DNA of 64,000 bases from Anaerolineae bacterium (GTDB lineage Bacteria > Pseudomonadota > Alphaproteobacteria > DSM-16000 > Inquilinaceae), in assembly GCA_028285185.1 (NCBI GenBank), contig JANQQD010000255.1:1-64000 (forward strand), read 5' to 3'. Positions 27,528 to 58,658 of this stretch are shown piece after piece (within the stretch, counting starts at the first letter, position 1; every line of letters begins with the position of its first letter). Position numbers and translations under genes: made by a program. A model generated the notes under the pieces. It had not been told where the DNA came from, did no database searches, and worked only from the letters and a program-made list of their open reading frames with translations.

Positions 27528-27601
27528 CAGAACCCCTCCATTGATTTTGCGGTAGTTTTAAACCGCCGCGCTACGAGCTCAGTTATGATTCGATGCTGGT
27601 T

Positions 27602-30187: not shown

Positions 30188-31267
30188 TCAGGCGTCCGCC
30201 AGGATCGGCCCCCTTATCCCCTCAAAGTGCATCCGTAAGGCTGGCCGCTCGGTCGTGCGCCGCGGGTCTATCTGGGAGAGGGCTTGCCGCATCTCGTGAA
30301 TTTCGCCCGACCAGGCATCGGGCACCTGGATCGAACCGTAGTATCGCAGACAATGGGTCAGATGCGACGAGAACGCAAAGTCGTATCGGTTAGCAACATG
30401 GCCGAGAATGGCCGCCGCGCTGCCGCCCTCGGCCAGAGCGTTGAGCGCGCCGACCGCGAGACACACAGACCGGAGCCCTTGGCCCGTGCCATCGCCCGAG
30501 ATCGGATCGAAGCTCACTGCCCGATCGCCGGCCGGAAGCGCTGCCGCGCTTGCCGGAGGCGGCCCAAGGCGCGGCGCGATGGCGGTGTGATGCGGCGGCT
30601 CGGTTTCCAGCGATCCAAGCAATGGCGCGAGATGTGCAGACAGCGTACCGCCTGGCGCGTGCCGAAGCCGCTTGGCCAAGCGGGAAAGATCGAGGCGCGC
30701 CTCCGGGGTCGCAAGCTGAACCGTCATACGGTCGCAGCTTGTGGGCAAAAGGAACATCCAGAACCCGTCGCCCGCAAGCGTTTCGCTCTGGTGTGACAGC
30801 CGCGGTTCAAGCGGCAGCGCTGGCCAGACCGCCATAGTGCGCTTTCCGGCCGTGATCTGACAGGCCTCGGGCAAAGCGGGACCGCGGGCATCGATCAGGT
30901 AGGTACCCGTGTCGCTGGGCACGTCTGCAATGATCTCGACCCCGCTGAGGCATGTCTCGAGCCCAGCGGCGAGCTCGGCAGCGTCGAGGCTGAGAGCCGC
31001 GATCTCAATAACATCGGCCGCGGGACCCGACCACGCGACACGGCGCTGGGACAGCCTATGCGTCGGGACGAATTCTTGCACCGGCTTGCCCCAAATGTCA
31101 GCGAACATCGCCTCGGTCTCAGCCGGCAAGGCAATGGCGCGGCTTTGCCTTGCGCAGGATGCCACCAACCGCACTGACCAGCCGCCATCGGCTAACAGCT
31201 TGGCGGCGGTTAGCCCGGCCGGGCCCGCGCCCAGCACGGTGATATCGCGAGGGCGGCTCTGGCTCAA
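30188..31267 (-). CDS. FAD-dependent monooxygenase, LodB/QhpG-like
   Basis: A 359-residue flavoprotein. The FAD-binding fold is ITVLGAGPAGLTAAKLLA at the N-terminus and the second FAD motif is GDRAVSFDPISGDGTGQGL. This pattern matches the LodB/QhpG and tryptophan-halogenase-like group. LodB and QhpG are required to build CTQ in LodA and in quinohemoprotein amine dehydrogenase, where QhpG hydroxylates the precursor tryptophan. The start overlaps the stop of the LodA-C/ferritin gene by four bases (ATGA). It is the last of four overlapping genes, so a role in maturing the product of that operon is the simplest reading. Confidence 0.82.
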   Translation of the reverse strand: MSQSRPRDITVLGAGPAGLTAAKLLADGGWSVRLVASCARQSRAIALPAETEAMFADIWGKPVQEFVPTHRLSQRRVAWSGPAADVIEIAALSLDAAELAAGLETCLSGVEIIADVPSDTGTYLIDARGPALPEACQITAGKRTMAVWPALPLEPRLSHQSETLAGDGFWMFLLPTSCDRMTVQLATPEARLDLSRLAKRLRHAPGGTLSAHLAPLLGSLETEPPHHTAIAPRLGPPPASAAALPAGDRAVSFDPISGDGTGQGLRSVCLAVGALNALAEGGSAAAILGHVANRYDFAFSSHLTHCLRYYGSIQVPDAWSGEIHEMRQALSQIDPRRTTERPALRMHFEGIRGPILADA

Positions 31268-33336
31268 ACGCCGCCGCCCATAACCTCGAGAAACGCCCGG
31301 CGGATGCTCGCCAGAGCGTCGCTTGAGCGCTCGGCCCGCGCGCGCAGCTCGGCATTGCCCGAAGCTAGCGCCTCGGTATTAAGCGTATCGAGCGGCTGGG
31401 TTGCGTTGGCCATTACTGCGGCCAGTCCGCCAGCCGCTGCGTCAGGCGCCGGCGCCCGGGCCACCTCAATACCTGGGCCTGTCGCGGGGCTTGGCCCGGC
31501 GGTGAAAATCCCCAGATTCACATCGCCCGCCAAGGTCGGCGGGGTGAAGAGCGGCGCGCCGCCGGCCGCGATGAGCGCGCGGATCTCGATATCCATGCTG
31601 TCGACCATTGCGATCCGGGTTGCTTCCAGAAGCCGCCCATGCTCGCTATCTCCGCGCCCGAAAACCACGAGAAGCAGGTTCAGGATCACCTCATAACTGC
31701 GGTCGACGCGCAGCTCGAACGCTTTGCCGGCGCTTGTCACGGCAAGCGGCGCAGGGTTTGATGCGGTTCGCAGATAGCTTTCATCGGGCGGCTCAGGCAA
31801 CAGCTGGCGGACACGCTGGAAACGGTGGAAATGGTCGTAACCTTCATCAATGATCAACTTGATCAGATGCAGCACGCGGTCTTTGATCGCATCGCTGATC
31901 TCGCCGCTTTTCTCGATGCTAAGGTAAAGCCGCGTATACATCCCGTCGACAGTGTCCGAGGCCACATCCGGGTCCACATCCTTGCTGCTGCGTTCGACAG
32001 TGATGAACCAATCGATCTGGTCGCGGGTCGCGGCGGTAAGCGCGAATGTATGAGGCAGGAAGCGGTTATTGCCGTCTTTGTCTTGGGTCTTGGCCGCTCG
32101 TGCCATCACCGGTGTCTCACCTAAAAGCACAAGGATTTCGTTCACCCAGCGGAAGTGGCGCATCTCGTCGATTGCGACGCCGAGGATAGTGCTGGCGGCT
32201 TCGTAAAGGCGAATCGCGGCGGTCTCATCCTGCGGCGGCGGCGTGGCGGGCGCGTTGATCGAGTAATAGGCGTAGAGATATTCGACCATCAGCGCGTGCT
32301 CGATCCCGGCAAGATAGGTCAACCGGTCGATGATGGTCGGGCGGTCGGGGAAAAGCTCGCTGTCGGGAAGGGTTTCCGGGCTACGCTTGGTGAACCGGTC
32401 GGTTTCACGGTCGTCGATCACGACGGGCAGGATTTCCCAGCCGTTGATCAGCTCCGCATGGTTCATCTGGCGCGGCACCCGCTCGGAAGGCGGCTCGGAC
32501 GTGGTCGCGGGATGTCCGCCTCGCCAAAGCCCCTGCCGGACCACGGGCGGATGGGTCGGCGGCTCGGGCGCAATCTCGCCGCTGCGCACCCGCTGGAAAT
32601 TGTAGATCTGCGGGCCCTCGGGGTCGACGGCGACCATATCGGGCTTGTTCGAGGCCCAGTACCAGCAGCCGCAATCGGTGAAATCGTATTGCCAGGGCGA
32701 ACACAGCGAACGCGTCAGATCACCGGGCTCATACATGTCGGGATCGATTACGCCATCTATCAAATAGGCGCTGCGGGTGCCGAAAATCACCGAAATCGCC
32801 GCCTGGCCCGGTACCGGGATCGAGCTGCTTTGCCCGGTGTTCAGTGCCGCAATGATTGCGCTCTGCTGCGCCATCGGGATCGGGGTGATATCGGGTCCAA
32901 GGACGATAGCGACGGGTCCCGGCTCGAACTCGCGGATGATCTGCCAAATGGCGCTGCCGGGAGGATTTTCGGCGCTGGCCGACATACGTATGGTCCACTG
33001 CAGCGTCGGACCGGCGTTTTCGGGCGCCTCGAGATCGGGAATGATACCACCCACCGCCAGCACCCGCAGCCCTGCGGTGAAATCCGCCTCGGCGATCGGA
33101 AAGCCGCGCGTAGGGTCATAGTCGCGCAACCAGCCGCCGGTGCCGGCATGCAGCTCGATCAAAAGCCCGTCGATAAATCGTTTTTCCAGGTTCCGGTGAT
33201 CGAATTCGAGGCCGGGAAAGGTGTTTTCGACCGTCGCGTCGGGCCGGGTGGTCACCGGATTGCCACGCACCGCCACATAGGAATGCGCGGTCTGGTTCAA
33301 CGGCATGATTTTTTGCGATTTGAGCGCGTCAGACAT
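31264..33336 (-). CDS. LodA C-terminal-like domain with CTQ-type motif fused to a ferritin-like domain
   Basis: A 690-residue two-part protein. Residues about 35-260 resemble the C-terminal half of LodA: FPGLEFDHRNL matches FHPGIEVTWPFR of the full-length homologue at 38323-40245. The cofactor region CSPWQYDFTDCGCWYWASN matches its PWQTDEASC and FWGARVPN. Asp218, Cys222 and Trp227 are candidate CTQ residues. Residues about 330-590 form a VioB/RebD-like ferritin domain with acidic and His ligands in AGIEHALMVEYLYAYY and IDEMRHF. No signal peptide is seen. The ATG at 33336 overlaps the radical SAM gene by eight bases and has AAGGGAAA upstream; 33666 would add residues antisense-like to that gene. 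The missing N-terminal LodA half is encoded at 34663-36150. Confidence 0.75.
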   Translation of the reverse strand: MSDALKSQKIMPLNQTAHSYVAVRGNPVTTRPDATVENTFPGLEFDHRNLEKRFIDGLLIELHAGTGGWLRDYDPTRGFPIAEADFTAGLRVLAVGGIIPDLEAPENAGPTLQWTIRMSASAENPPGSAIWQIIREFEPGPVAIVLGPDITPIPMAQQSAIIAALNTGQSSSIPVPGQAAISVIFGTRSAYLIDGVIDPDMYEPGDLTRSLCSPWQYDFTDCGCWYWASNKPDMVAVDPEGPQIYNFQRVRSGEIAPEPPTHPPVVRQGLWRGGHPATTSEPPSERVPRQMNHAELINGWEILPVVIDDRETDRFTKRSPETLPDSELFPDRPTIIDRLTYLAGIEHALMVEYLYAYYSINAPATPPPQDETAAIRLYEAASTILGVAIDEMRHFRWVNEILVLLGETPVMARAAKTQDKDGNNRFLPHTFALTAATRDQIDWFITVERSSKDVDPDVASDTVDGMYTRLYLSIEKSGEISDAIKDRVLHLIKLIIDEGYDHFHRFQRVRQLLPEPPDESYLRTASNPAPLAVTSAGKAFELRVDRSYEVILNLLLVVFGRGDSEHGRLLEATRIAMVDSMDIEIRALIAAGGAPLFTPPTLAGDVNLGIFTAGPSPATGPGIEVARAPAPDAAAGGLAAVMANATQPLDTLNTEALASGNAELRARAERSSDALASIRRAFLEVMGGGV

Positions 33337-34666
33337 CGGGCTTTCCCTTTGAATTGGAGGGGCGTCGGGTAAAGAAATCGGGTCGGGCATGTTGCAACTC
33401 GGCATAGGCCGAGAGACAGAAGTCGAGCCAGCCACGGATGTAGTCGCAGCCGATCCGGCCACGATTTTTGACTTCGTGATAGCAGCCTCCGCCGCAGAGA
33501 TAGCGCGCCCAGCAGCTCTTGCAGGGCTCTTGCCGGTCGACATGGGCGGCAGCGAGATGTGCGGTGCGGCGGCCATAGTCGGCGCCGTTTGCAAGATCGC
33601 CAAAGGCGAAATCCGGGTCGTCAACCAGCCGATGACAGCCATAAAGCGCGCCCTCCGCGCTGACACTCAGATAGCCCGCGCCGGCCCCGCAGGGATAAGG
33701 CATATGCGCGCCGCGATGGATTTGCTGCATTGCGGTTTGAAAATTGGAGAACGGCAGGACGACACCTTTCAACGCAGCCGCTTTGGCGCGGCGGCCGCAA
33801 ACGATCATCTCGTCGAGGAAGCGGGCGAGTTCGTCCGGGCAATAGGCCGGCGCCCCGGGCGGTGCAGCAATGACCGGGCCAAAGCCCACCTCGTCGAGAT
33901 CGAGGCTCAGGAGGTGATCAAGCATCTCGGGCAAGGCGCCAGTAAAGGGTGTCACCGTTGCGCGCGCCGACAGATGCAGGGGCCGGGTGGCCGCGAGCCG
34001 CGCAAGCCCCGTGATGGCGGCGTCATAGGCGCTGCCCCGCCCGTTCCGCCGCCGCCGCTGGCCGTCATTGCTGGCGCGCGTTCCGTCGAGCGAGACAGCC
34101 ACCGCGAAAGGATAGTTGGCAAGCAGCGCTGCATCCTCATCTCCGATCAGCGTCGCATTGGTGGTGATGGAGAAGCGCACCCGATGCCCGGCCCGGTCGG
34201 CGGCACGCGCCGCATAGCGGGTGGCGGCGTGGACGAGGCGCTGGTTGATGAAAGGCTCGCCACCCATGAACCCCACTAGCAGATCGCTCTCAGGCGGCGC
34301 ATCGGCGATTAGCCGGTCGATCGCGTCCTCAGCCACACGTTCAGGCATGAGCCGAGCCGCACCGCCGAAGCGGCCTTCATCGGCATAGCAGTAGCTACAG
34401 GACAGATTGCAGGCCTGCGCCACGTTGAGCGAAAGCGATTTAACCGGCGGCGGCGCGGCCGCTTCGGAGCCGATGTAGCGCCGGGTCCCGCCGATCAGAC
34501 CGGCTAGCGCTTCGGGAACTCGGCCTGCATCGATGTCAGTAGCGACGGCCTGTGCGGTGTCACGGTCGAGATCGAAGATGCGGCTGCCGTCAGCGAGATA
34601 GAGGTGGTCGCCGCGACCGCTGGAAAACACCCGCGCCTCGGCTTGAATGTCGAACCGGGCGTTCAT
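33329..34666 (-). CDS. Radical SAM/SPASM peptide maturase
   Basis: A 445-residue radical SAM enzyme. The SAM-cluster motif is ACNLSCSYCYADEG (Cys86, Cys90, Cys93), followed by the GGEPF SAM-binding motif. The C-terminal SPASM region binds auxiliary clusters (YPCGAGAGYLSVSAEGALYG and later CKSCWARYLCGGGCYHE). Such enzymes modify peptides or proteins, for example QhpD, which makes thioether crosslinks in the CTQ subunit of quinohemoprotein amine dehydrogenase, and anaerobic sulfatase maturases. It overlaps both neighbours (ATGA with the LodA-N gene, eight bases with the LodA-C/ferritin gene), so it almost certainly acts on one of them. No short precursor-peptide gene is seen nearby. Confidence 0.9.
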   Translation of the reverse strand: MNARFDIQAEARVFSSGRGDHLYLADGSRIFDLDRDTAQAVATDIDAGRVPEALAGLIGGTRRYIGSEAAAPPPVKSLSLNVAQACNLSCSYCYADEGRFGGAARLMPERVAEDAIDRLIADAPPESDLLVGFMGGEPFINQRLVHAATRYAARAADRAGHRVRFSITTNATLIGDEDAALLANYPFAVAVSLDGTRASNDGQRRRRNGRGSAYDAAITGLARLAATRPLHLSARATVTPFTGALPEMLDHLLSLDLDEVGFGPVIAAPPGAPAYCPDELARFLDEMIVCGRRAKAAALKGVVLPFSNFQTAMQQIHRGAHMPYPCGAGAGYLSVSAEGALYGCHRLVDDPDFAFGDLANGADYGRRTAHLAAAHVDRQEPCKSCWARYLCGGGCYHEVKNRGRIGCDYIRGWLDFCLSAYAELQHARPDFFTRRPSNSKGKPDV

Positions 34667-36150
34667 CCGATGTGGCCGCTTGTGCGCAATCCTTCGACCC
34701 AGCGCTGCAGCATTTCGTATTGCCGGCGCGTGATGTTCATGGCCCGCCCGTGCGAGCCGCGCATCAGCGGCGGCATGCGGCGGTCGAAGCGCTGAAACTC
34801 ATCGAGCGGCTTGCGGATCCAGGTGTCGATCAGCTGAGGATCCTCGCGCAGCCGGTCGCGCAGATATTCCAGCGCAGTGTAGCGGCGATGCTTGCGGCGG
34901 CCGCGGTACGAGACCGGAAGGGCATCGGATCGGTGGGCGGTGGGGGCGATCTCGTCGCGGGTTGCCCAAATCGTGTTGAGCGCCAACTCGTCGCGGTCCC
35001 CGGTCGCGCGCGGCAGGCGAACCTCTTCGTCTTGCGTTGCCGGATGCAACCGATCCAACTCGGTGTCCTTGTTCATCAGATCCGAGGTTTCGAGCGCCCG
35101 TTCGAACAGATCGCGCACCAGATCTTCCAACTCGTCGAGATCGGCCTCTCGGATGCCAGCCCGGTCGACCCGGTCGGCGAGCCCATCCTGCAGAGATGTC
35201 AGATGCCGTCGGTCGGGCGCGAAATCGGGCGGCCCTACGGCGACGCGGGCAACAGCCGTAAGGCCGCCGACGCTGCACTCGATGATCCCGTCGGTGACAT
35301 CGTCGACGAGGCCGAGACTGACATTCGTACTTCTCAAATCGCCGAAGAACGCGTGGATGCCACCGGGGGTCTTTCGCGTGTCTCCCGGGATGAAGGGTGG
35401 GCCGACTCGTTGCCCTAGCACGTAGTTTGGCCAAGCGGCCCGGGGATTGAGAATCAGCCGGCCCGGCAAATCGAACCCAGCCCATTCGCCGGGTCTGGGC
35501 TCTGCCGCGATGCGCTGCAAGAGATCGGTCGGCCCATAGACCAGACCTTTCGGCGGATAGAATCGGAGCCGGATTTCGGGCAATTCGTCGTTCGGCTGCG
35601 CTACCTGCACCTCGCCGACCGGGATCGACTCACCATGCGGCAGAAGGCGGGAGGATTCGTCACCCTCGGTTGCGGTCAAGGCAAGCCGGACGCGGGTTGT
35701 GGTGCCGGCCGGTATTTGCTCTTCACACGTAAGCCGGTCTCCATCGCTCAGCGTGAATTCATAGGCTTTGAGATTGGCCAGCCGGATCTGCCAGCGGACC
35801 TGGGACAGGTCGAGGCCCGAGTCTTCGAGCACGAGTTTCGTGATCGGCCCGCTGCTGGTCGTGCCGTTGATGGTCCAGCGGCCATGCAGTTCGAAATAGG
35901 GGCAGACGGGGCGGAAATGCCAGGTTCCGTTGCCGTCCTCTTCCTTGAAGATCACCTCATCCGCAGGTTCCACAATACTGGGATTGCCGTTCGCGTCCAG
36001 CTCCACCGACGGGGCGGCGCGCAAGGTAGTCTTACCGGTGCCACCAGGGCCATCATCGGTGGGGCCCCAGGTGAAGTTCGGGCATGGAGTTTCGCTGGAG
36101 CCCAGTCGGGCTATGGCAATCGGCGGCGTCAGCCAGATGGCGTCAATCAC
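34663..36150 (-). CDS. Separate LodA N-terminal-like domain protein
   Basis: A 495-residue protein matching only the N-terminal half of LodA-type oxidases. Pairs with the full-length homologue at 38323-40245 are IWLTPPIAIARLGSS with VAIHPAIGVARVGNA, WQIRLANLKAYEF with WRVEVANLKAGWY, DDVTDGIIECSV with DDICDGPVRARV, and VGPPDFAP with VAPPNYGP. At the end, MPPLMRGS then RRQYEMLQRWVEGL matches LPPIYGDA then GLQYEHLQNWADGT. It stops there, just before the cofactor half, which is found in the next-but-one gene. The GTG at 36150 follows GGGGGGAG; the GTG at 36204 would put that Shine-Dalgarno sequence inside the gene. There is no signal peptide. Confidence 0.8.
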   Translation of the reverse strand: MIDAIWLTPPIAIARLGSSETPCPNFTWGPTDDGPGGTGKTTLRAAPSVELDANGNPSIVEPADEVIFKEEDGNGTWHFRPVCPYFELHGRWTINGTTSSGPITKLVLEDSGLDLSQVRWQIRLANLKAYEFTLSDGDRLTCEEQIPAGTTTRVRLALTATEGDESSRLLPHGESIPVGEVQVAQPNDELPEIRLRFYPPKGLVYGPTDLLQRIAAEPRPGEWAGFDLPGRLILNPRAAWPNYVLGQRVGPPFIPGDTRKTPGGIHAFFGDLRSTNVSLGLVDDVTDGIIECSVGGLTAVARVAVGPPDFAPDRRHLTSLQDGLADRVDRAGIREADLDELEDLVRDLFERALETSDLMNKDTELDRLHPATQDEEVRLPRATGDRDELALNTIWATRDEIAPTAHRSDALPVSYRGRRKHRRYTALEYLRDRLREDPQLIDTWIRKPLDEFQRFDRRMPPLMRGSHGRAMNITRRQYEMLQRWVEGLRTSGHIG

Positions 36151-36426
36151 TTGTTTTCTCCCCCCAAACAATGACTGCAACCAATACGTCGGGAAATGCG
36201 CCACAGCATATCGGTTTCGAAAGCCGAATTTCCTCTTTCACGGTCTTTGCTGACAAACCCGTCGACACATAACAGCCTTCCCGCTACGATTGTGCTCAAT
36301 ATAGCACAAACAACCAACAACGGCGAGGTGAAGACGCCCCCCCCTGCACTTAATGGACGGCGTGCATAGTCAGCGGCGCCATTGGCGTGCTTTGTTGGTT
36401 TGGTTGCATGATGGAAAGGGTCGCAT
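36151..36426. promoter_or_regulatory. Divergent promoter region between the two LodA-type operons
   Basis: 276 bases, locally lower in GC, between the split-LodA operon (leftwards) and the metzincin/LodA operon (rightwards). It must hold both promoters, suggesting joint control. A short inverted pair TTGTGC/GCACAA lies near 36290-36312 and could be an operator. No regulator gene is adjacent except the broken sigma factor at 44409-44903. Confidence 0.5.
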
Positions 36427-37683
36427 TTGGACTTCAACGGACTGACGCCAGCACCCCGCAGAAGACGGGTCTTTTCGGCAAGCTCGGGCGGGTCGGTTTC
36501 CATTCTTGATATCGAAGTGACGCAGGCGATCCAGAACCTGCGCCATGAAGTGCGACTGATCGCGGGCAAGAAAACCGTCGTTCGCGTCTATCTGAAGCCG
36601 AACGCCCTGCCGCGTAATATGCGGGTGCGCGGCGAGATTCTAATATCGCGCGGGACCACGGCACCGGCGCGCTTTGTGATGTCTAAAAACACGATTACGC
36701 TAAAAGGGTCCGGCAATCCGTCGCTCGGAACGCAGCGCCGGAACGCGGAGTTGAGCCTCAATTTCGAGTTGCCGGGTAGAGGCGTAGGGCCGCTTCTCAT
36801 TCAGCTCAACCGGGTCATGCCGGCGACCCGCGGCGACGATATCCCGATCAGCAATCCCGGCCAGACGCGACAGGTGGAATTCGTTTCGGCTCCGCCTTTG
36901 CGCATCCGCGTCCTGGGCCTGCGCTATGTCGATGACCGGCAGACACCGGCGCAGACGTTTGCGCCGGATGCACTCCATTTCGACTTTCTGAAGTCCTACC
37001 TGACGCGGACCTATCCCGTCCCGCGGCTCGAATGGTCGCAGATCGTGGTAAATGCCGGCCCTAATATCAATCCGCCGTTTCACAGCCCAGATTTCCCGCG
37101 TATCGACCCGATTTGGTCGGCGGTTGCGGGCCGAGTGATCGCGCGGCTGCAGCTTCTGCGCCAGGCGGATGTGAATAGCGGTCGCGACCCGCGGACGCAT
37201 TACTATGGGCTCGTCGCTGATGACAGCGGGTTCTTTCGCGGGCGCGCGTCGCGGGTAGCGACCCTCGCCGACCCTTCGGTGGTTGCCTTCGGCCCAACTG
37301 GCAATCCTTCGAATTATGCGAACTTTGCCTGGGACGAGGATTCCTCGTTCGGCGACTGGTACGGCGCGCATGAGCTGGCGCATACGCTGGGCTGCCGGCA
37401 TCCGGGATGCCAGAAGACGCCGACGAGCCAGCCGAGCCAGGGCCGCGACCCCCAATCGACCTATCCTTACGTGTTGGGGCGGCTTTCGGATGCGGCAGAG
37501 GATTGCATTGGCTTCGATACAGGTGACCCCGATCTGGGCATGCCTATGCGGGCTTATCCCCACGCGACCTCCAGCGATTTTATGACGTATTGCGATGACC
37601 AATGGGTGTCCCGGCACACCTATGACGAGCTGTTCGACCGGCTCGTTGAAGAGGATGAGAACTTTGCGCCGGAGAACATCTGA
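36427..37683 (+). CDS. Metzincin-type zinc metalloprotease
   Basis: A 418-residue protein with the extended zinc motif HELAHTLGCRH (His315, Glu316, His319, His325) and a Met-turn at FMTYCDD (Met386), which defines metzincins. The N-terminal half (about 25-160) is a beta-rich domain with no evident catalytic motif. There is no signal peptide. The start is a TTG at 36427 with GGAAAGGG upstream; this choice is moderately secure. It leads the operon with LodA, LodB-like flavoprotein and DyP peroxidase. In quinohemoprotein amine dehydrogenase maturation a protease (QhpE, of a different family) trims the CTQ subunit, so a processing role here is possible. Confidence 0.85.
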   Translation: MDFNGLTPAPRRRRVFSASSGGSVSILDIEVTQAIQNLRHEVRLIAGKKTVVRVYLKPNALPRNMRVRGEILISRGTTAPARFVMSKNTITLKGSGNPSLGTQRRNAELSLNFELPGRGVGPLLIQLNRVMPATRGDDIPISNPGQTRQVEFVSAPPLRIRVLGLRYVDDRQTPAQTFAPDALHFDFLKSYLTRTYPVPRLEWSQIVVNAGPNINPPFHSPDFPRIDPIWSAVAGRVIARLQLLRQADVNSGRDPRTHYYGLVADDSGFFRGRASRVATLADPSVVAFGPTGNPSNYANFAWDEDSSFGDWYGAHELAHTLGCRHPGCQKTPTSQPSQGRDPQSTYPYVLGRLSDAAEDCIGFDTGDPDLGMPMRAYPHATSSDFMTYCDDQWVSRHTYDELFDRLVEEDENFAPENI

Positions 37684-37701
37684 TTAGACGCGGGATCTCG
37701 G

Positions 37702-38295
37702 ATGAGCAATTGGATTCAAGTGGTTGGCGTCTTCGACTCACAAGCCAACACGGGTGAGATCCTGGGCGTACAACCGGCGCTCGCGCCCAAATCGGCCACC
37801 GGAGAGGCAAGCGAGATAACGCTGACCGCGTTGAGCGGCGCCGGCGAAGTGCTGGCCGAAGTGCCGGTAACGCCTGACTATGGCAGCTGCGACGACAATG
37901 CGGAGGTGGGCACGTTTCAGATCTATATCGATCTGCCCTCCGCCACGCGCGCCCTGAGCCTGCAGCATCAAGGCGTGCATCTTGCGCAATTCGTGCCGGA
38001 CGATCCCGCCGCCTCGGCAGCAGGCGAAAGCTTCGGTCTGTCACCGCAGGCCGACCACCGGGTGCGGCTTGAGGGAACATCCGGTAGCCCCTCGAATGCA
38101 ACCTATATCCTGCAGGCGCGACCCAAAGGCACGACAATCTGGGAAACGCTCGATATCGGGCTCGACAGGCCCGAGACCGCGACGGTCGATCTGAGGCAGT
38201 TTCCCGATGCCGAAGTTGTGGAAGTGCGAATTCTAAAATCATCGGGTTTCGAGACAGTCGAGCTCGACCGACAAACCTTCGATTTCAACGAGTAA
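37702..38295 (+). CDS. Hypothetical beta-rich protein
   Basis: A 197-residue acidic protein I do not recognise. It has alternating beta segments and no signal peptide, membrane helix or cysteine motif beyond one Cys in DYGSCDDN. It starts 18 bases after the metzincin and ends 27 bases before the LodA gene, in the same operon. It could be a binding or chaperone subunit for either neighbour. No function is assigned. Confidence 0.6.
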   Translation: MSNWIQVVGVFDSQANTGEILGVQPALAPKSATGEASEITLTALSGAGEVLAEVPVTPDYGSCDDNAEVGTFQIYIDLPSATRALSLQHQGVHLAQFVPDDPAASAAGESFGLSPQADHRVRLEGTSGSPSNATYILQARPKGTTIWETLDIGLDRPETATVDLRQFPDAEVVEVRILKSSGFETVELDRQTFDFNE

Positions 38296-38322
38296 TTTCC
38301 AGATCATCGAAATGGAGATGTC

Positions 38323-40245
38323 ATGGACGCTTCGCCGATTGTGTCTGTCGCCATTCATCCCGCCATCGGTGTTGCCCGGGTCGGCAACGCTCGAGAAGAA
38401 TGGTTTCTGGCCGCCGATCTTCGCGGCAGCGCGCCCGCTGATCCGGACGGCTATCGCGACGCAGACGGGCGGATTAAGCGCCAGGTTTCCAGGTTCCGGA
38501 TCTATGCCACCCATGCCTCGGGCGAGGTGCGCGAGCTGACTCTGGATGAGGCCGAGATCGAATGGCGGGTCGAGGTCGCCAATCTGAAAGCGGGCTGGTA
38601 CCAGTTCAATTACCCGCTCGATCTGCCGGTCGCGGGGATTGAAGCGCCAGAACGGCGGAACGCGGCCTTTACCGGCGGGGATCGCGGCAGGCTGGATATC
38701 AGGCCGAGCGAAAAGGCAATTTCGGGCCGGAACGAGGCCGGGGCGCCGTACCGGTTCGACGATGGCGAGTTCTTCGGCAAACGGGTCTATCTCGGAGAAC
38801 TGCGGACCGATTCGGCGGGACGGCTCCTGGTCTTCGGCGGCCGTGGCGCAAGCGCGCCGCTGACCCCCGGCACCGCGCCCCGGACGTTCGCCAATAACGA
38901 TGGCTGGCACGATGATATCTGCGATGGGCCGGTGCGGGCGCGGGTGCGGGTCGGAGGCGAAACCTTCGAAGCGGAGCCCGCACATGTCGTCGTCGCGCCG
39001 CCGAACTACGGGCCGGGCCTTTTCGGCGTGGTCACGATGGATGACGTGTTGCAGGATCTCTACGTCCGCGAAGGCTGGGTCGCCGCGCCCGAGGTTACCC
39101 GCTTCACGCGCGACATCTGGCCGGTCTTCGACCGGATTAGCGGGCATCAATGGGTGAATGACGGGTTCTTGCCGATCGTGGGCGTGGGTTCGCCACTCGA
39201 TGCGCGCAGCCCGGAGATCATCGCGAAGCTGCAGGAAGGCTCAAGCGCGAACGCCGGGTTTCGGGCTCAGGTGCATGCGCTCTTCCGGCAGCCCGGTGAC
39301 GAGCGGCCCGAAGCGCTGCCGCCCATTTATGGCGATGCGCTGAGTGACCGGCGGCCGGATGGGACACTTCTCGATCCGACCCGGCAGGAGTTGTTTCTGA
39401 CCGGCCTGCAATATGAGCATTTGCAGAATTGGGCGGACGGAACCTTCGAGGCCGATTGGCAGGGCATGCCGGAATTCCCGGATTTCGATGCGCTGCCGCC
39501 GAAGGCGCAGACCGAAGAGCTGGACCGGGCAGGCATGTATGAATGCCTCGGTGGGCCGTTTCATCCTGGCATCGAGGTCACCTGGCCGTTCCGGTTGGCG
39601 ATCATGTGGAAAGCGCCCTACCGGTTACGGGCGCTGCCCGAAGGCACCGCCGTCCGCCAGGATTACGGCGAGACGCTTTCGGTCGAAACCGCCCTGGCGG
39701 CTGACGGGCCGCATGGCGCTTCAGGCCCCGGTTCGCTGACCCGTTGGCTGGGTGTGCCCTGGCAGACAGATGAGGCATCGTGCAATTCAGGCCTGCTATA
39801 CAGCCCCGAGCTTTACCTTTCGAGCCCGAGCTTTTGGGGTGCGCGCGTGCCGAACCAGGTGTTGTCGCAAGAGGCATTTGCGCTTGCCAGCTCGGGCAGG
39901 TTGAGCCCCGAAGAGGCCGACAGGCATTTTGCCAAGCGGCATCTGTGGCTCCGCGATATCAATGGCAGAGGCTATTTTGAGCGGATCGACGCGATGGTGA
40001 CGCGCTGGTGGAAACTGGGCTTGGTAGCGGCCAAGACCCCGCCCGAAGGCTCGGACCTGCCCGATCCGACCTTTGTCGAAACCGGCCGCCAGCCATCGGC
40101 GACGGCAGATCCGTCGCTTGAACTGTTGCTGGCGGTGCTCGCGCTGGAGGACAGCGATGGCGCGGCGGAACTTGGGGCCGGACCGGGCGGGACGCCGCCG
40201 GAGGAGAGGCGCGGCTACAAGACCTTCTCGCGCGGCGAGATTTGA
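38323..40245 (+). CDS. LodA-like CTQ-dependent amino acid or amine oxidase
   Basis: A 640-residue full-length member of the LodA/GoxA family, quinoproteins that oxidise L-lysine, glycine or other amines, releasing aldehyde, ammonia and hydrogen peroxide. The N-terminal hallmark is AIHPAIGVARVGNA. The cofactor region is VPWQTDEASCNSG with Asp483 and Cys487, followed by SFWGARVPNQVL with Trp505. These match the Asp, Cys and Trp that form cysteine tryptophylquinone in LodA. The C-terminal helix region (HFAKRHLWLRDINGRGYFE) is also typical. There is no signal peptide, as in other LodA proteins. It overlaps the flavoprotein gene by one base (TGATG). The substrate cannot be predicted. Confidence 0.88.
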   Translation: MDASPIVSVAIHPAIGVARVGNAREEWFLAADLRGSAPADPDGYRDADGRIKRQVSRFRIYATHASGEVRELTLDEAEIEWRVEVANLKAGWYQFNYPLDLPVAGIEAPERRNAAFTGGDRGRLDIRPSEKAISGRNEAGAPYRFDDGEFFGKRVYLGELRTDSAGRLLVFGGRGASAPLTPGTAPRTFANNDGWHDDICDGPVRARVRVGGETFEAEPAHVVVAPPNYGPGLFGVVTMDDVLQDLYVREGWVAAPEVTRFTRDIWPVFDRISGHQWVNDGFLPIVGVGSPLDARSPEIIAKLQEGSSANAGFRAQVHALFRQPGDERPEALPPIYGDALSDRRPDGTLLDPTRQELFLTGLQYEHLQNWADGTFEADWQGMPEFPDFDALPPKAQTEELDRAGMYECLGGPFHPGIEVTWPFRLAIMWKAPYRLRALPEGTAVRQDYGETLSVETALAADGPHGASGPGSLTRWLGVPWQTDEASCNSGLLYSPELYLSSPSFWGARVPNQVLSQEAFALASSGRLSPEEADRHFAKRHLWLRDINGRGYFERIDAMVTRWWKLGLVAAKTPPEGSDLPDPTFVETGRQPSATADPSLELLLAVLALEDSDGAAELGAGPGGTPPEERRGYKTFSRGEI

Positions 40246-41273
40246 TGGAGACGCAAAAGCGGTTCGAGGTCTTGGTCGCAGGGCGAGGCCCTGCGGGCCT
40301 TGCGGCATCCATCGCATTGGCCGAGCGGGGCATCGAAGTGGTGAGCCTTGCGCCGGTCGGGGCGTCTCCGGCCTTGGCGCGTGCCGAGATGCTGTCCCTC
40401 GCAGTCGAGGCCATCCTGGCGCGGCTCGGGCTCGGCGACGTGCTGGCGCGAGCGGTGAGGCTTCGGGGCGTGGAGCGCCACTGGAACAGAGCGCGGCCCG
40501 AGCTGCAGGACGGCCTGTCGCCTGACGCCGCGGGCCCCGGGTGGAGCGTCGACCGTGCCGACCTGCAAGAGGCGCTGACGACGCGCGCCGCGGCGTTGGG
40601 CGTGACGGAGGCGCAGGGCCAAATTCGCGGCGTCGCCGGCCAACCTGGGCGTTGGCGTGTAACGCTCCCGAATGGCGGCAGTCTTGACGCACGATTCCTG
40701 GTCGATGCTACGGGCCGGCCCGCGGCACTGGCGCGCAGGCTGGGCGCGAAACTACGGTTCGGCCTGCCGCTTCTTGCCCGGGTCTGGACCGCAACGGCGC
40801 CGGCACCGTCACGATTGGTGGCCAAAGCCGAGCCGGACGGGTGGCGCTACACCCTACCCCATCCGGCGGGCGGCGCCTCGGTTGGCTGGCTGACTCGCCC
40901 CGGCCTGGTCCGCGACGCGCCGCCCAGCTTTGCCTCGACCCGTGCACAGGACGCGCGGAGCATGCAGCTCAGCCCGGTGGCCGGGCCCGGTTGGCTCGCT
41001 GCCGGAGATTCCGCCGCCGCCTTCGACCCGATCGCCTCACAGGGTCTCTTCAACGCGCTCTCCGGTGGTTTTTTTGCCGGCAATGCGGCGGCGGATGCGG
41101 TGCGGGGGGCTCCAGAAAACATCACGGTCTACCGGCTCCTGACAGAGCGCACTGCGGCGCGGACGCATCATCTGATCCCCAGCCAATATGCCGCCAGCGG
41201 ATACCGGACCTCCTTCTGGGCCGAGCGCGCGCAGCAAACAATTCTGAGCAAAGGAGTGACTTATGGACTTTAG
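40245..41273 (+). CDS. LodB-like FAD-dependent maturation protein
   Basis: A 342-residue flavoprotein. The FAD fold is FEVLVAGRGPAGLAASIALA, where the usual GxGxxG reads GRGPAG, and the second FAD motif is GDSAAAFDPIASQGLFNALS. LodB proteins are needed to form CTQ in their cognate LodA, usually from the adjacent gene, exactly as here: the start overlaps the LodA stop by one base and the gene ends 11 bases inside the next one. It is a distant paralogue of the flavoprotein at 30188-31267; each probably serves its own LodA-type partner. Confidence 0.87.
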   Translation: METQKRFEVLVAGRGPAGLAASIALAERGIEVVSLAPVGASPALARAEMLSLAVEAILARLGLGDVLARAVRLRGVERHWNRARPELQDGLSPDAAGPGWSVDRADLQEALTTRAAALGVTEAQGQIRGVAGQPGRWRVTLPNGGSLDARFLVDATGRPAALARRLGAKLRFGLPLLARVWTATAPAPSRLVAKAEPDGWRYTLPHPAGGASVGWLTRPGLVRDAPPSFASTRAQDARSMQLSPVAGPGWLAAGDSAAAFDPIASQGLFNALSGGFFAGNAAADAVRGAPENITVYRLLTERTAARTHHLIPSQYAASGYRTSFWAERAQQTILSKGVTYGL

Positions 41274-42810
41274 CCCTCCGGCAAATCAGGACGATCTGTC
41301 CGACCGACCGATCGACCGCGACGCGCTTCTGACGCTTTGGAACCGGCAGAGTACACCGGCGGACGAGCGCTCGTTTTACATGGGCGATTATGTAACGGCG
41401 GCTGCACGAAACCCGAACTATGTCGATCCGCGCCAGGTGACGCCGAGCGGCACCCCAAGCCCCGTGCCCTGGAACGGATTTCCCCGGCTCTTGTCGCGGT
41501 TTTACAATGACCAAGCCTCCGAGGCGGCACGCGCCCAGGCCGACGCAATAGCTGATGTGCCGACGCCCTGGCTCTATTGGGTCGCACCTGGGCAACCGCT
41601 CGGTGCCGGGCCGCCGCATCAACTGCCCTTCTTCGCCCAGCGACTTGGCGTGCCGGAGGCCTTTCTGCGCGCCGTGGCTGGACCGCTTCATGCTGTCAAT
41701 GCGGATGGTACGATCGGCGACCCGATCCCACAACTCCGCCGTCAGCAGGACGAGTATCTCGAATGGCATGCCGACCGGAACGCGGATGGCACGATCCGTC
41801 GGATCTGCTTCACCGCGGAGCCGCCCGATTATTGGGAGGCATTGGCCGAGGTGGCGCCTGACCGGGTGCTGGCGCTGTATCAGCAACATGTGAACCCATC
41901 GATTACTCGCGACGCTCTGTTTTATCCCGACCAGGTGGCCGCGCCCGGTTTTGATGCGAACGGCAATTTCCTGTGGCGGATCGTCCCCTGGCTGGGAGGG
42001 ACCTATGACCCGCTCAACCGCTGGACGACGACGGACGGGATCATGCATCTGACCCATAGCGCGAACACGCTTGGCGCCGAGGTCAATCTGGCAGGAGATG
42101 CCAGCGTACCGCGCTCGGTCGACAGCCAGCCGCGTACGCCCGGTCAGGATCCGGCGCCGCAGGTGCTGCGCATCGCCTGCGGTGCCTACGGCGGGATCAA
42201 CCGGTCTAGCGACCCGAATATCGGGCTTATCGTCGGCGATCTGGTGAAGGACGGGAACCGCATTACGCTGACCGATCCGGTGGGGCTCTATATCGGCAAG
42301 GTCGATCTTGCCGGTCTCCGCGGTCCGAATGGCGAGGTCCTGGAAACTGTCGCGGGTCGAGTGGTGCGCGGCTCCGATGACCCGTTCGAGCCGCGAATAC
42401 TGCGCTATGAGGTCGAGCTGCCGTCGGGAACGGCCTTCACGCTGTCCGATTGCAGCTTCGACAATCGGCCCTTGCTTCGGGGCGGCCAGATCGCTCGGGA
42501 GACGACCATCCGGCTTTACGCGAATGTCTATCCAAACTCGGCCACAGCCGCGGAAGAGGCCTGCAGCGCCGGGGTGTGCCGCAGCACCGAGAATGACCAG
42601 CTCTTTCTGATCGGCGACCCAACGCAATGCCCGCCGCCCAGCCACCCGTTCTGGCTGCTTGCTACCCCATACGAGGGCGATACTGGCGGGGCGGCGCTAG
42701 GTGTGGGCGAGCTGGAGGGTGCCGCGATCGACATCACGGACCGGGTCTCGGCCGAGGAAGCCCGCATGCCGGAGAAAAACGTCAATCCCTACAGGCTTCT
42801 GGGTTTCTGA
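41263..42810 (+). CDS. Hypothetical protein of the LodA operon
   Basis: A 515-residue protein of unknown family. It has no signal peptide or membrane helix. The middle contains RIACGAYGGINRSSDPNIG, reminiscent of a small beta domain. Cysteines are grouped near the C-terminus (EEACSAGVC, then DPTQC). The start has AAGGAG upstream and overlaps the flavoprotein end by 11 bases, and the stop overlaps the DyP start by one base (TGATG). Tight coupling says it belongs to the LodA system, perhaps as a structural or acceptor subunit, but nothing in the sequence proves this. Confidence 0.6.
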   Translation: MDFSPPANQDDLSDRPIDRDALLTLWNRQSTPADERSFYMGDYVTAAARNPNYVDPRQVTPSGTPSPVPWNGFPRLLSRFYNDQASEAARAQADAIADVPTPWLYWVAPGQPLGAGPPHQLPFFAQRLGVPEAFLRAVAGPLHAVNADGTIGDPIPQLRRQQDEYLEWHADRNADGTIRRICFTAEPPDYWEALAEVAPDRVLALYQQHVNPSITRDALFYPDQVAAPGFDANGNFLWRIVPWLGGTYDPLNRWTTTDGIMHLTHSANTLGAEVNLAGDASVPRSVDSQPRTPGQDPAPQVLRIACGAYGGINRSSDPNIGLIVGDLVKDGNRITLTDPVGLYIGKVDLAGLRGPNGEVLETVAGRVVRGSDDPFEPRILRYEVELPSGTAFTLSDCSFDNRPLLRGGQIARETTIRLYANVYPNSATAAEEACSAGVCRSTENDQLFLIGDPTQCPPPSHPFWLLATPYEGDTGGAALGVGELEGAAIDITDRVSAEEARMPEKNVNPYRLLGF

Positions 42811-44354
42811 TGGAACTAAGCGCCGAACCGGTCTTGGAGATCGACGACATCCAAGGGCATATCCTCGTCGGGTTCCGCGGACCGTATCAGGAGATCGTGG
42901 GGTTCCGGCTTGACCCGGCAGCTCTCGGACCTGCGCGGACGGCGCTGTTGCCCTGGGCTAACAGGGTGACGTCGACCCGTACGGCGCTGGCACGGCGCAA
43001 CGCGGCGAAAGAGGCCGAGGCCGCCGGAGCGCCGCTGCCTGCGTCGGATTCGGTGATGATGGCGATGGCGTTGACCGCAGAGGGGCTGTCATGCCTCAAC
43101 GCGGCGGCGCGGCCCGAGGATCCCGATTTCCTGGCCGGTGCAGCGCGTTCGGCGGCGACACTGAGCGACGTGACCGACCCCTCAAATGGCGTGCCGCTTG
43201 GCTGGGTGTATGGCGACGTTCCGGAGCGTATTCCCGATGTTTTGGTGATCTTCGGGGGCGACAGCGAAACGGCGGTGCGCGGAATGGCCGACACGTTGAT
43301 CGCTGATCTCGACAGACTGGCCACGATCGCGTTGCGCGACACCGGCGTGCGACTGCCCGAAGACAAGGAGCATTTCGGCTTTGTCGATGGTATCTCGCAG
43401 CCCGCACCGCGCGGCCGGATCGCAGAGGATACGGCGCTTGTGCACCGCGCGCTGCCTCCGGGCGACCCGATCGCGGGGCGCTTCGCGCGCCCGGGGCGCC
43501 CGCTGGTTTGGCCGGGGCAATATCTGTTCGGCGAGCCGACGCAGTTGGCCGACAGTCTCGCTCCCGGCCCCATCGCGGGTGGGGTGGGCACCGCGTTGAA
43601 AAACGGATCGCTACTGGTGCTGCGCCGGCTTCGGCAGGATGTGGCGGCATTTCAGCGCGGCATGGAGAACCTTGCGGCAAGTTTTGCCGGTCAGGGGCTG
43701 AGTGCCGATGCGGCGACCGTGGCCGCCTGGTGCGTGGGGCGCTGGTCGGACGGAACGCCGCTGGTTCTGTCGCCCGACGCGCCCGACCCGTCGATCGGTG
43801 GCAACATCCATCGGCGGAACGGGTTTCTCTTCAGCCAGGCCCTGGATTCCGCAGATTTGCGGTTACCGGACGGATCGGAGGTTCGATTTCCGGGATCGCC
43901 GGCCGATCTCTTCGGGCAGGCCTGCCCGTTCTTTGCCCATATCCGGCAGGTTAACCCGCGCGACGACCCGGTCGATTTCGGCGGCCACGGAATCACGCTG
44001 CAGGCGCAGATGCTGCGCCGCGGGATCCCTTACGGACCGGCCTGGACCGGCGCCGACGACGGGGTCGATCGCGGGTTGATTTTCATGGCCTATCAGACCT
44101 CGATCGCCAACCAGTTTCACCGGCTCATGAAACGCTGGGTGAATGACAATACGGCGCCGCTGTCACGTTCGGGGATCGACCCAGTGATTGGGGCGGATAA
44201 GTCGCCCGGGCGCGCGCTGGAGCGGAGGCATGCGGATGGACACTTTGCGCGGAGCCTGCTCAGGGGTAACTGGGTGACGGCGACTGGCGCGGTCTATGCG
44301 TTTACGCCGGGACTTTCCGCGCTGCGCCGGATGCTGACGGAACAGACATCCTGA
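42810..44354 (+). CDS. DyP-type heme peroxidase
   Basis: A 514-residue dye-decolorizing peroxidase. The catalytic GxxDG motif is GFVDG (Gly190-Gly194, Asp193 distal). The proximal heme histidine is in FFAHIRQVNPRDD. The opening IDDIQGHILVGFRG is typical of the longer DyP subgroup, and no Tat or Sec signal is seen. It uses hydrogen peroxide, the by-product of LodA-type oxidases, so it may remove peroxide or use it to oxidise a second substrate. The start overlaps the previous stop by one base. It is the last gene of the operon and of the cargo block. Confidence 0.92.
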   Translation: MELSAEPVLEIDDIQGHILVGFRGPYQEIVGFRLDPAALGPARTALLPWANRVTSTRTALARRNAAKEAEAAGAPLPASDSVMMAMALTAEGLSCLNAAARPEDPDFLAGAARSAATLSDVTDPSNGVPLGWVYGDVPERIPDVLVIFGGDSETAVRGMADTLIADLDRLATIALRDTGVRLPEDKEHFGFVDGISQPAPRGRIAEDTALVHRALPPGDPIAGRFARPGRPLVWPGQYLFGEPTQLADSLAPGPIAGGVGTALKNGSLLVLRRLRQDVAAFQRGMENLAASFAGQGLSADAATVAAWCVGRWSDGTPLVLSPDAPDPSIGGNIHRRNGFLFSQALDSADLRLPDGSEVRFPGSPADLFGQACPFFAHIRQVNPRDDPVDFGGHGITLQAQMLRRGIPYGPAWTGADDGVDRGLIFMAYQTSIANQFHRLMKRWVNDNTAPLSRSGIDPVIGADKSPGRALERRHADGHFARSLLRGNWVTATGAVYAFTPGLSALRRMLTEQTS

Positions 44355-44408: not shown

Positions 44409-44903
44409 TCACCACGCCGCCGGTTTCGAACGCGATTTCTGGTAAGCCATGCTTCTGCTAAAGCAGCTTTCCCTCAATTCAGCGGCCTCGCGGCAGGGCT
44501 GAGTCGGTTCGCCAATCGATCCGCCTGGCGTCCGAGCGCCCTCGTAATCGGCCACGTCGCTGGCAATCTCCCGCGCCTCCGCATCTTGTTCCTGCCGGCG
44601 CAGAGTATCGACCGCCGCACGAACTACGACCGTGTAGAAGTAGTTGTAGGGATCCGAAATTTCGCCCGGATTTTCGCGCTCTCGGCCATGAAACCGTTCG
44701 AATCCGGTTGAAATGCAGTCCTCTATCTCGTCGTCATCATACCTGCCACGACTTCGGATGTAGCGCCTGAGCCTTGGGCGAGCTTCATCCAACAGGAGCG
44801 CATAGAATTCGGCAACCTTACTGTTCTTCCAAGCGGCATTAACCCGTTCCTTTAGGTCGGGGTCTTCATCGAGTGGAGTTTCAGGCTCTGTGTCAGATTC
44901 CAC
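44409..44903 (-). pseudogene. Truncated ECF-like sigma factor
   Basis: A 164-residue frame whose middle resembles sigma-70 region 2: DDDEIEDCISTGFERF followed by DPYNYFYTVVVRAAVDTLRR. Region 4 (the -35-binding helix-turn-helix) is missing. After about residue 140 the sequence becomes atypical, and only 54 bases separate the stop from the end of the convergent DyP gene. Most likely the 3' end was lost when the LodA cargo joined the conjugation backbone. A short functional variant cannot be excluded. Confidence 0.65.
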
Positions 44904-45647: not shown

Positions 45648-46928
45648 TCACTCACGATAGGGCCTCAGCACCATGTCCTTGTTGACGATGATGCGGAGCG
45701 GCCAGCCAGGACGAATGGTGATGGTGGGCTGGATATTGAGGTTGCGCTCGGTGATGCGCTGGCCGACCTGATTGGCGCTATCTTGGGCGGACTCGCGGAT
45801 CGCCTCGACGAGATCGTCCTCTTCGTCGCCGAAGGTAAGCTCGGTGCCGACGCCGAGCAGCGTCGACAGCACGATGCCCTTGAGGAGGCGCCAAGTGTGG
45901 AAGTTCACCTCGTCCTCGAGCCCGGCATAGCCTGTGGTGTCGGTCGCCGGCAGGTTCTCGATCACGACCGACGAGCCGTCGGGCATGATGATCCGCTGCC
46001 AGACAACCAGCGCGCGCTCCTGGCCGAAGGCGACGACGCTGTCATAGGTGCCGATCACGCGGGAGCCTTGCGGGATCAGCAGATAGCGCCCCGACACGGT
46101 GTCGTAGACGTTCTCGGTCACTTGCGCGATGACGCGGCCCGGCAGATCGGAGTTGATGCCCGTCACGAGACTCGCGGAGATGACGGTTCCCGCCATGACT
46201 TGATAAGGCGAGGCCGGGTCCTGAAGCGTGTGCGGATTGTAGATGTCCGCGTCGACATCCTGGTTCAGGAAATCGAGCTTGCGGCCTTGCAGATTTTGGT
46301 CGCTCTGGAGATCGAGACCGAGCCCTTGGTCGGGCGTGTCCGCGCGGAGAACGTCGAAGGGATTGCGGTCGGGCGTCGCCGATACCTGCGTCGGGCTATC
46401 AGCTGGTTGGGCGCCGGTCGCGGTGCGGGAGGTGAGCTGAAAGAACACGCCGGCCTCGCGGCCCTGCTGCGCCAGGCGCGCTTGCCGGATGCGCTCGGCG
46501 CGCGCCGCGTCATCCTCCGGGCTTGGGCGAAACGGCAGATTGGGCGGCGGGCCGATCCCCAGATCCTGCTCGGCGCCGACGACGGCAGGGCCAATATCGC
46601 CGGGTAGTGGCGGCCCCAACTGCACCGGCGGCGGCAGGTCGCCATAGTCGCGCGGCAGCGCGTCCAGCCCCTCCGGCCTAGGTGCGTTCTCGGTTCGGAT
46701 CAGCTCGCGGCCGGTGTCGTCTCGGTCGAAGAGCCGCGGCGGATCGAGGGCGAAGATCGTCGCCCCGAAGAGCAACAGGAGTCCCGTCCCGGAGAGAACG
46801 ATCAGCACCCGTCGGTCAATTCGGGTCACCGGCCTGGGCTTGGCGCGCAGCGCCAGGTTCTCCGGATCGACTTTCGGGGTGGCCGGCGGCTCGGGACCCG
46901 ATGGCTCCTCTCGTCGCTCGTCCGTCAT
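45648..46928 (-). CDS. trbI: Type IV secretion protein TrbI (VirB10-like)
   Basis: A 426-residue VirB10-like protein. It has a short cytoplasmic part, one membrane helix at about 42-64 (RVLIVLSGTGLLLLFGATI), a proline-rich periplasmic stretch and the conserved C-terminal barrel domain (YQVMAGTVISASLVTGINSD, then NVYDTVSGRYLLIPQGSRV). It spans the envelope as part of the core channel for conjugative transfer. It overlaps trbG by four bases (ATGA). Confidence 0.95.
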   Translation of the reverse strand: MTDERREEPSGPEPPATPKVDPENLALRAKPRPVTRIDRRVLIVLSGTGLLLLFGATIFALDPPRLFDRDDTGRELIRTENAPRPEGLDALPRDYGDLPPPVQLGPPLPGDIGPAVVGAEQDLGIGPPPNLPFRPSPEDDAARAERIRQARLAQQGREAGVFFQLTSRTATGAQPADSPTQVSATPDRNPFDVLRADTPDQGLGLDLQSDQNLQGRKLDFLNQDVDADIYNPHTLQDPASPYQVMAGTVISASLVTGINSDLPGRVIAQVTENVYDTVSGRYLLIPQGSRVIGTYDSVVAFGQERALVVWQRIIMPDGSSVVIENLPATDTTGYAGLEDEVNFHTWRLLKGIVLSTLLGVGTELTFGDEEDDLVEAIRESAQDSANQVGQRITERNLNIQPTITIRPGWPLRIIVNKDMVLRPYRE

Positions 46929-49994: not shown

Positions 49995-50009
49995 CGCGCA
50001 CCTCTTTGA

Positions 50010-53773: not shown

Positions 53774-53789
53774 ACGAACGTCTCCCTGG

Positions 53790-58651: not shown

Positions 58652-58658
58652 TCGTCTT

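What the first reader, a model, noticed from the sequence alone, without database searches (positions are those of the whole stretch)
36427..44354. LodA/LodB operon with metzincin protease and DyP peroxidase
Six rightward genes, several overlapping, encode a metzincin, an unknown small protein, LodA, LodB-like flavoprotein, an unknown 515-residue protein and a DyP peroxidase. A protease is needed for QHNDH maturation (QhpE), and a peroxidase would consume the peroxide that LodA releases. This suggests a self-contained oxidase-peroxidase unit, possibly with processing, that oxidises an amine and a second substrate.
Basis: partly seen in the sequence, partly recalled or inferred. Interest (0 to 1): 0.75.

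Follow-up and report, generated by a model that had tools for sequence, protein, structure and literature searches.

The report
Mobile amine-oxidase and peroxidase operon
A bacterium carries, on what looks like a mobile DNA element, a compact operon that pairs a predicted peroxide-making amine oxidase with a peroxide-using enzyme, a protease and an unknown partner protein; versions of this set recur in unrelated bacteria, and a second oxidase beside it looks like a previously undescribed hybrid of two known quinone enzymes.

Summary
Six tightly packed rightward genes (36427-44354) encode a metzincin-like protease, a 197-aa beta-rich protein, a LodA/GoxA-type oxidase with intact cysteine-tryptophylquinone residues, a LodB-type flavoprotein, a 515-aa protein of an undescribed family ('X') and a D-type DyP peroxidase. 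X sits next to DyP, another unknown family (Y), or tyrosinase/CxxCH genes in all 25 loci examined, and is fused to subtilase, phospholipase D or Y elsewhere, so it looks like a general effector partner. The QHNDH resemblance lies in the divergent genes at 30188-36204: a LodA split into two proteins, with QhpD-like radical-SAM and QhpG-like partners and an invariant QhpC-like Cys/Asp/Trp motif, pointing to a LodA/QHNDH hybrid. I found no description of it in the open-access library searched. Both sets appear to be cargo of a conjugative element. Activity, substrate and biological role are unproven.

The parts
36427..37683 (+). metzincin-like metalloprotease (TTG start uncertain); zinc motif HELAHTLGCRH at residue 315, Met-turn DFMTY
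   Evidence: ORF; motif; Reprolysin_5 17.9 bits below cut-off; 42-47% identical relatives, each next to a 'small' gene
37702..38295 (+). 197-aa protein, no known family, predicted all-beta (low-confidence model)
   Evidence: relatives always directly follow the protease gene
38323..40245 (+). LodA/GoxA-family CTQ oxidase; predicted CTQ Cys487-Trp505, Asp483, His414
   Evidence: LodA_N/LodA_C; GoxA and LodA PDB relatives; residues
40245..41273 (+). LodB/GoxB/QhpG-type flavoprotein, predicted CTQ maturase; GxGPAG FAD motif
41263..42810 (+). 515-aa protein X, undescribed family; recurrent partner of DyP, Y or tyrosinase/CxxCH genes
42810..44354 (+). D-type DyP peroxidase; Asp193 (GFVDG), proximal His377 (AHIRxxNPR)
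36205..36426 (.). divergent intergenic region; inverted repeat TTGTGCT-N6-AGCACAA at 36290-36309, possible shared operator
   Evidence: promoter scan not above chance
34663..36204 (-). 513-aa protein, LodA N-terminal half (split LodA subunit 1)
   Evidence: hhalign to LodA residues 1-383, probability 98.8%, E 5e-17
33329..34666 (-). radical SAM/SPASM enzyme, QhpD-like (CNLSCSYC)
   Evidence: TIGR03906 262 bits (cut-off 453)
31264..33336 (-). 690-aa protein: LodA C-terminal-like region with QhpC-like Cys/Asp/CTQ motif (C212-x5-D218-x3-C222-x-C224-x2-W227-x5-D233) fused to a VioB-type ferritin-like domain
30188..31267 (-). QhpG-like flavoprotein
   Evidence: NF049967 90.6 bits (below cut-off 240)

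Best explanation
The operon encodes a two-step oxidative unit. LodB (flavoprotein) matures LodA by building its cysteine-tryptophylquinone (inferred from family). LodA then oxidises an amine or amino acid with O2 and releases H2O2 (inferred from family and intact active-site residues). The D-type DyP peroxidase, made from the same transcript and directly preceded by its recurrent partner X, uses that H2O2 to oxidise a second substrate (inferred; precedent GlxA-DtpA). X is probably a partner or scaffold that presents or positions effector enzymes, because it is linked or fused to DyP, subtilase, phospholipase D, tyrosinase-type genes or family Y. The metzincin and the small beta protein form a constant pair tied to this LodA clade; I think they are more likely a co-delivered protease with its partner protein than a LodA maturase. 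The unit is cargo of a conjugative element and most plausibly serves antagonism of competitors or predators, as other LodA-type peroxide producers do. A second, split LodA-type enzyme with a radical-SAM and QhpG-like maturation pair is encoded divergently and is probably co-regulated. Shown: gene content, catalytic residues, tight gene packing, recurrence. Inferred: activities, coupling, role.
For: Catalytic residues intact in LodA, DyP and the protease. LodA-LodB-X-DyP overlap end to start. Metzincin-small-LodA-LodB order with X on the same strand recurs in Bradyrhizobium L010, Mycetohabitans L011 and Microvirga L012. The LodA proteins in these loci are 49-53% identical to the window LodA, versus 40% or less for LodAs without the protease. 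X is adjacent to DyP in 12 of 25 loci, to Y in 10, to tyrosinase and/or the CxxCH protein in 3, counting the window. X is fused to S8 subtilase, PLD and Y, and DyP to LRRs. LodA-catalase fusions are known (PMC4417212). GlxA peroxide drives DtpA compound I (PMC4736821). Integrase, VirB/VirD4 genes and a relaxase-like gene are in the window.
Against: Only Mycetohabitans repeats LodA, DyP and metzincin in one run; Bradyrhizobium has a divergent DyP-like gene 2.3 kb away on the other strand, and Microvirga has none within the locus examined. X-DyP also occurs without LodA (Nocardia, Bacteroidetes, cyanobacteria), so DyP must be able to get peroxide elsewhere. No protein of the operon shows an obvious signal peptide (by eye), which is awkward for an external weapon. 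No activity data.
Confidence: 0.58

Rival explanations
1. DyP (with X) is there for protection or maturation rather than for using LodA's peroxide: it detoxifies leaking H2O2 or supports cofactor formation, as DtpA is needed for GlxA maturation.
For: DtpA deletion disturbs GlxA maturation (PMC4736821); catalase-like domains are fused to many LodAs.
Against: X-DyP pairs stand alone in several phyla; LodA clades without DyP have only LodB; DtpA-GlxA dependence was relieved by copper.
Confidence: 0.18
2. The metzincin (with the small protein) is a maturation protease for LodA, as the reader suggested by analogy with QhpE.
For: The protease-small pair is constant and directly upstream of one LodA clade in all three loci that keep LodA besides the window; a Mycetohabitans relative without LodA has a broken protease gene (L007).
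Against: Other LodA-LodB pairs lack it; QhpE is a subtilisin-like enzyme acting on a leader that LodA lacks; nearby proteases in related loci belong to unrelated families (S53, S8, C25, M4, M48).
Confidence: 0.15
3. No shared pathway: mobile elements accumulate a shuffled arsenal of independent effector enzymes (proteases, oxidases, peroxidases, lipases) and the operon is one local assortment.
For: X, DyP, LodA and the divergent split-LodA module occur in many combinations with S8, S53, C25, PLD, tyrosinase, caspase or CHAT genes.
Against: Fixed order metzincin-small-LodA-LodB; overlapping reading frames in the window; X always next to one of three partner types; clade-specific association.
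Confidence: 0.3

Closest known systems
LodA/LodB and GoxA/GoxB operons (Marinomonas, Pseudoalteromonas)
   Same: CTQ oxidase gene followed by an overlapping flavoprotein maturase gene; CTQ Cys/Trp, Asp and His residues kept
   Different: below the GoxA (388.6 vs 750) and LodA (168.5 vs 600) equivalog cut-offs; adds protease, small protein, X and DyP
LodA-catalase (pfam00199) fusions, group III LodA-like proteins (PMC4417212)
   Same: peroxide-making LodA coupled genetically to a haem, peroxide-handling protein
   Different: separate DyP peroxidase gene plus X instead of a catalase-fold domain
GlxA-DtpA of Streptomyces (PMC4736821)
   Same: oxidase with protein-derived crosslinked cofactor working with a DyP that uses its H2O2
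   Different: copper-radical oxidase, secreted Tat DyP, no LodB or X
QHNDH maturation (qhp operon: QhpC, QhpD, QhpE, QhpG)
   Same: divergent cluster has QhpD-like rSAM, QhpG-like flavoprotein and a QhpC-like Cys/Asp/Trp motif
   Different: motif sits in a LodA C-terminal-like protein fused to or beside a ferritin-like domain; partner is a LodA N-half, not QhpA/QhpB; no QhpE or QhpF identified
Fungal lodA-lodB loci with PF12902 ferritin-like genes (PMC4417212 Fig. 1C)
   Same: ferritin-like PF12902 gene beside lodA-type genes
   Different: no radical SAM or split LodA described there

Membership tests
LodA/GoxA CTQ oxidase family (window LodA) | LodA_N and LodA_C domains | tested here: met
   231.7 and 115.5 bits, cut-offs 26.3 and 25
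LodA/GoxA CTQ oxidase family (window LodA) | CTQ Cys and Trp, catalytic Asp and His | tested here: met
   C487, W505, D483 invariant in the nine aligned proteins; H414 in the FHPG motif of the 6 checked
GoxA or LodA equivalogs (glycine or lysine-epsilon oxidase) | curated equivalog cut-off | tested here: not met
   388.6 of 750 and 168.5 of 600 bits; substrate not assigned
LodA/GoxA CTQ oxidase family (window LodA) | quinone formed and H2O2 released | not testable with these tools
   needs protein
LodB/GoxB maturase | FAD-binding flavoprotein directly downstream of and overlapping the lodA-type gene | tested here: met
   below GoxB/LodB/QhpG equivalog cut-offs
DyP-type peroxidase | family cut-offs, GxxDG Asp, proximal His, distal Arg | tested here: met
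   101.5 bits vs 100.5, PF21105 and PF20628 above cut-off, motifs; closest PDB relative an ancestral D-type DyP
Metzincin protease | HExxHxxGxxH and Met-turn | tested here: met
   HELAHTLGCRH, DFMTY; the G is Q in relatives
Metzincin protease | named Pfam family cut-off (M12 Reprolysin_5) | tested here: not met
   17.9 of 27 bits
QhpE-type CTQ maturation protease | subtilisin-like serine protease cleaving a QhpC leader | tested here: not met
   the protease is a metzincin-like zinc enzyme
QHNDH gamma subunit QhpC (window 690-aa protein) | PF08992 domain | tested here: not met
   no match
QHNDH gamma subunit QhpC (window 690-aa protein) | CxPxxxD-xxx-C(CTQ)...C...W...D crosslink motif | tested here: met
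   C-x5-D-x3-C-x-C-x2-W-x5-D in all 14 distinct C-part proteins, C-x5-D-x3-C-x3-C-x-W-x5-D in two QhpC
QhpD radical SAM maturase | TIGR03906 equivalog cut-off | tested here: not met
   262 of 453 bits, best family hit

The most novel reading that the evidence does not exclude
The element encodes two CTQ oxidases. One is a new hybrid class: a LodA split into two subunits whose CTQ half carries QhpC-type Cys-Asp thioether sites installed by a QhpD-like radical-SAM enzyme and a QhpG-like flavoprotein, fused to a VioB-type ferritin-like domain. It would bridge the LodA/GoxA and QHNDH families. Both oxidases feed peroxide to a DyP positioned by a new adaptor family (X) in a mobile antagonism system.
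Probability: 0.35. Interest if true: 0.82.

Novelty: new variant of a known kind. Interest (0 to 1): 0.62.

Why it matters
It would show that mobile elements carry ready-made oxidase-peroxidase pairs, and it introduces a widespread unknown protein family (X) that travels with oxidative and hydrolytic enzymes. The neighbouring split LodA with radical-SAM and QhpG-like partners would be a missing link between the two known routes to cysteine tryptophylquinone. It would make a testable case that LodA- and QHNDH-type cofactors share an origin.

Tried and rejected
(1) Fold of X: AlphaFold model with pTM 0.74 (core well predicted, tail disordered); no Foldseek match below E 0.2 and no VIA Z of 2 or more; no convincing sequence relative in the PDB. 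The fold stays unknown. (2) Single-sequence model of the 197-aa protein: pLDDT 46, all-beta only; Pfam gave only a weak galactose-binding hit in two relatives. (3) Known anti-phage systems: no PADLOC model for operon proteins; the weak viperin hit of the rSAM reflects the superfamily. (4) Phage origin: no X in phage records. (5) LodA in genomes with chromosomal X: none found, so LodA is not required for X-DyP. (6) Assigning glycine or lysine as substrate: rejected, below both cut-offs. (7) Promoter/terminator consensus scan: not above shuffles. (8) PDB hits to a short fragment of the 690-aa protein (designed beta-propellers, antibodies): treated as chance. (9) Searching genome contigs with X alone found only three loci; an alignment would have been a better use of that single scan. 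(10) QHNDH gamma subunit in the window's own genome: none found.

Full report
Observation. The six rightward genes are real and tightly packed: protease 36427-37683, small 37702-38295, LodA 38323-40245, LodB to 41273, X 41263-42810, DyP 42810-44354. The last four overlap end to start, which implies one transcript. LodA carries LodA_N and LodA_C well above cut-off and aligns with solved GoxA and LodA. The residues that form CTQ (Cys487, Trp505), the catalytic-site Asp483 and His414 are present; C487, W505 and D483 are invariant in the nine proteins aligned. It scores below both NCBIfam equivalog cut-offs, so its substrate cannot be named. LodB is a GoxB/QhpG-type flavoprotein. DyP passes its family thresholds and keeps GFVDG, the proximal His and the distal Arg; its nearest solved relatives are D-type DyPs. 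The protease has the metzincin zinc motif and Met-turn but passes no Pfam cut-off. The 197-aa protein and X match no family.

Recurrence. Searching 72,556 plasmids and reading the loci gave a clear picture, checked with one uniform scan. The order protease-small-LodA-LodB recurs in Bradyrhizobium barranii (L010), Mycetohabitans endofungorum (L011) and Microvirga lotononidis (L012), each time with X on the same strand nearby; the proteases are 42-47% and the LodAs 49-53% identical to the window's, the small proteins 27-31%. LodAs at about 40% or below have other neighbours. In Mycetohabitans X-DyP directly precedes the protease gene. In Bradyrhizobium a divergent DyP-like gene lies 2.3 kb downstream.

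Protein X. In 25 distinct loci (window included, all phyla sampled) X is next to DyP (12), to a ~520-aa unknown family Y (10), or to a tyrosinase and/or a secreted CxxCH protein (3). It is fused to a subtilase (L038), phospholipase D (L046) and Y (L012, L061), and a neighbouring DyP is fused to leucine-rich repeats (L045). This argues for a general partner or adaptor of effector enzymes rather than a DyP-specific factor (inference). Its predicted core is confident in part (170 residues at pLDDT 90 or more) but matches no solved fold.

How it probably works. From family knowledge, LodB-matured LodA oxidises an amine or amino acid and releases H2O2. A D-type DyP uses H2O2. Precedents for such a pair are LodA-catalase fusions (PMC4417212) and GlxA-DtpA, where GlxA-made peroxide drives the DyP to compound I (PMC4736821). 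The same paper reports that the DyP is needed for maturation of the oxidase, which I keep as a rival. The protease is unlikely to be a QhpE equivalent: QhpE is a subtilisin-like, single-turnover enzyme acting on the QhpC leader (PMC7876137), and other LodA-LodB pairs lack this protease.

The divergent cluster. Across a 222-bp intergenic region with a perfect 7-bp inverted repeat (36290-36309) lies a second system. The 513-aa protein aligns over LodA residues 1-383 (hhalign probability 98.8%, E 5e-17). The 690-aa protein aligns with the CTQ region of LodA (76%, E 2.2e-5; its Trp227 on LodA Trp505) and continues into a VioB-type ferritin-like domain. Between them lies a QhpD-like radical-SAM enzyme, and a QhpG-like flavoprotein follows. 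The CTQ region has C-x5-D-x3-C-x-C-x2-W-x5-D, invariant in all 14 distinct members found, window included. Two QhpC proteins fetched for comparison read C-x5-D-x3-C-x3-C-x-W-x5-D. In QhpC the CTQ is Cys37-Trp43 and Cys41-Asp49 is a QhpD-made thioether (PMC7876137); the third pair, Cys27-Asp33, I place from memory of the family. LodA itself lacks the two extra cysteines. So the cluster reads as a split LodA matured by QHNDH-type enzymes. It occurs in alpha- and betaproteobacteria, actinobacteria and cyanobacteria. It lies in the same locus as X in the window, L005, L010, L012, L015, L047 and L061; in Nostoc (L015) it runs straight into X-DyP. I found no description of it in the open-access library, which is limited.

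Setting. An integrase gene (22063), VirB/VirD4-type conjugation genes (45.6-57.4 kb) and a relaxase-like gene (63.2 kb) surround the clusters, and third-position GC is lower than in one upstream gene taken for host DNA, TctA. Related loci sit largely on plasmids, many conjugative, of soil, plant-associated and endofungal bacteria, together with proteases, phospholipases and caspase or CHAT genes. A mobile antagonism or conflict function is the most plausible role but rests on association only.

Verdict. Observation confirmed; interpretation partly supported; new variant of known kinds with one undescribed protein family, and a neighbouring hybrid quinoprotein system that is probably the more novel part.

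Noticed in passing
30188-36204 (-): Split LodA with QhpD-like radical SAM, QhpG-like flavoprotein and ferritin-like domain; QhpC-like Cys/Asp/Trp motif invariant in 14 distinct members.
   Followed up: yes
22063-23223 and 45648-63973: Integrase, VirB8/9/10/4/11, VirD4 and DUF3363 relaxase-like genes: the clusters are probably cargo of an integrative conjugative element.
   Followed up: partly
60292-62901 (+): 869-aa protein with caspase-like motifs (LAGHG, LDCCHA) by eye, no Pfam hit; caspase or CHAT genes also lie near related loci (L009 as annotated, L012, L010).
   Followed up: partly
27033-30094 (-): Secreted-looking multicopper oxidase (divergent, 52% GC) and a small cupredoxin-like protein next to the split LodA; multicopper oxidases and LodA-like genes are also neighbours in group ID operons of PMC4417212.
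   Followed up: no
44409-44903 (-): Short ECF-type sigma factor (region 2 only, possibly truncated) converging on the DyP gene; a sigma factor gene also precedes the Nostoc locus L015.
   Followed up: no
L037 6112-7689, L038 7205-8956, L010 8359-9822, L009 6083-7735: Family Y, ~520 aa, no Pfam match, upstream of or fused to X and never together with a DyP adjacent to that X: a possible functional substitute for DyP.
   Followed up: partly
L008 11385-12890, L033 9894-11591, L034 6636-8294: Secreted proteins with a single CxxCH haem motif following X, with a tyrosinase upstream in L008 and L033.
   Followed up: no
L045 9980-13507: DyP peroxidase fused to leucine-rich repeats in Sinorhizobium meliloti SM11, beside X and two radical SAM genes.
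   Followed up: no
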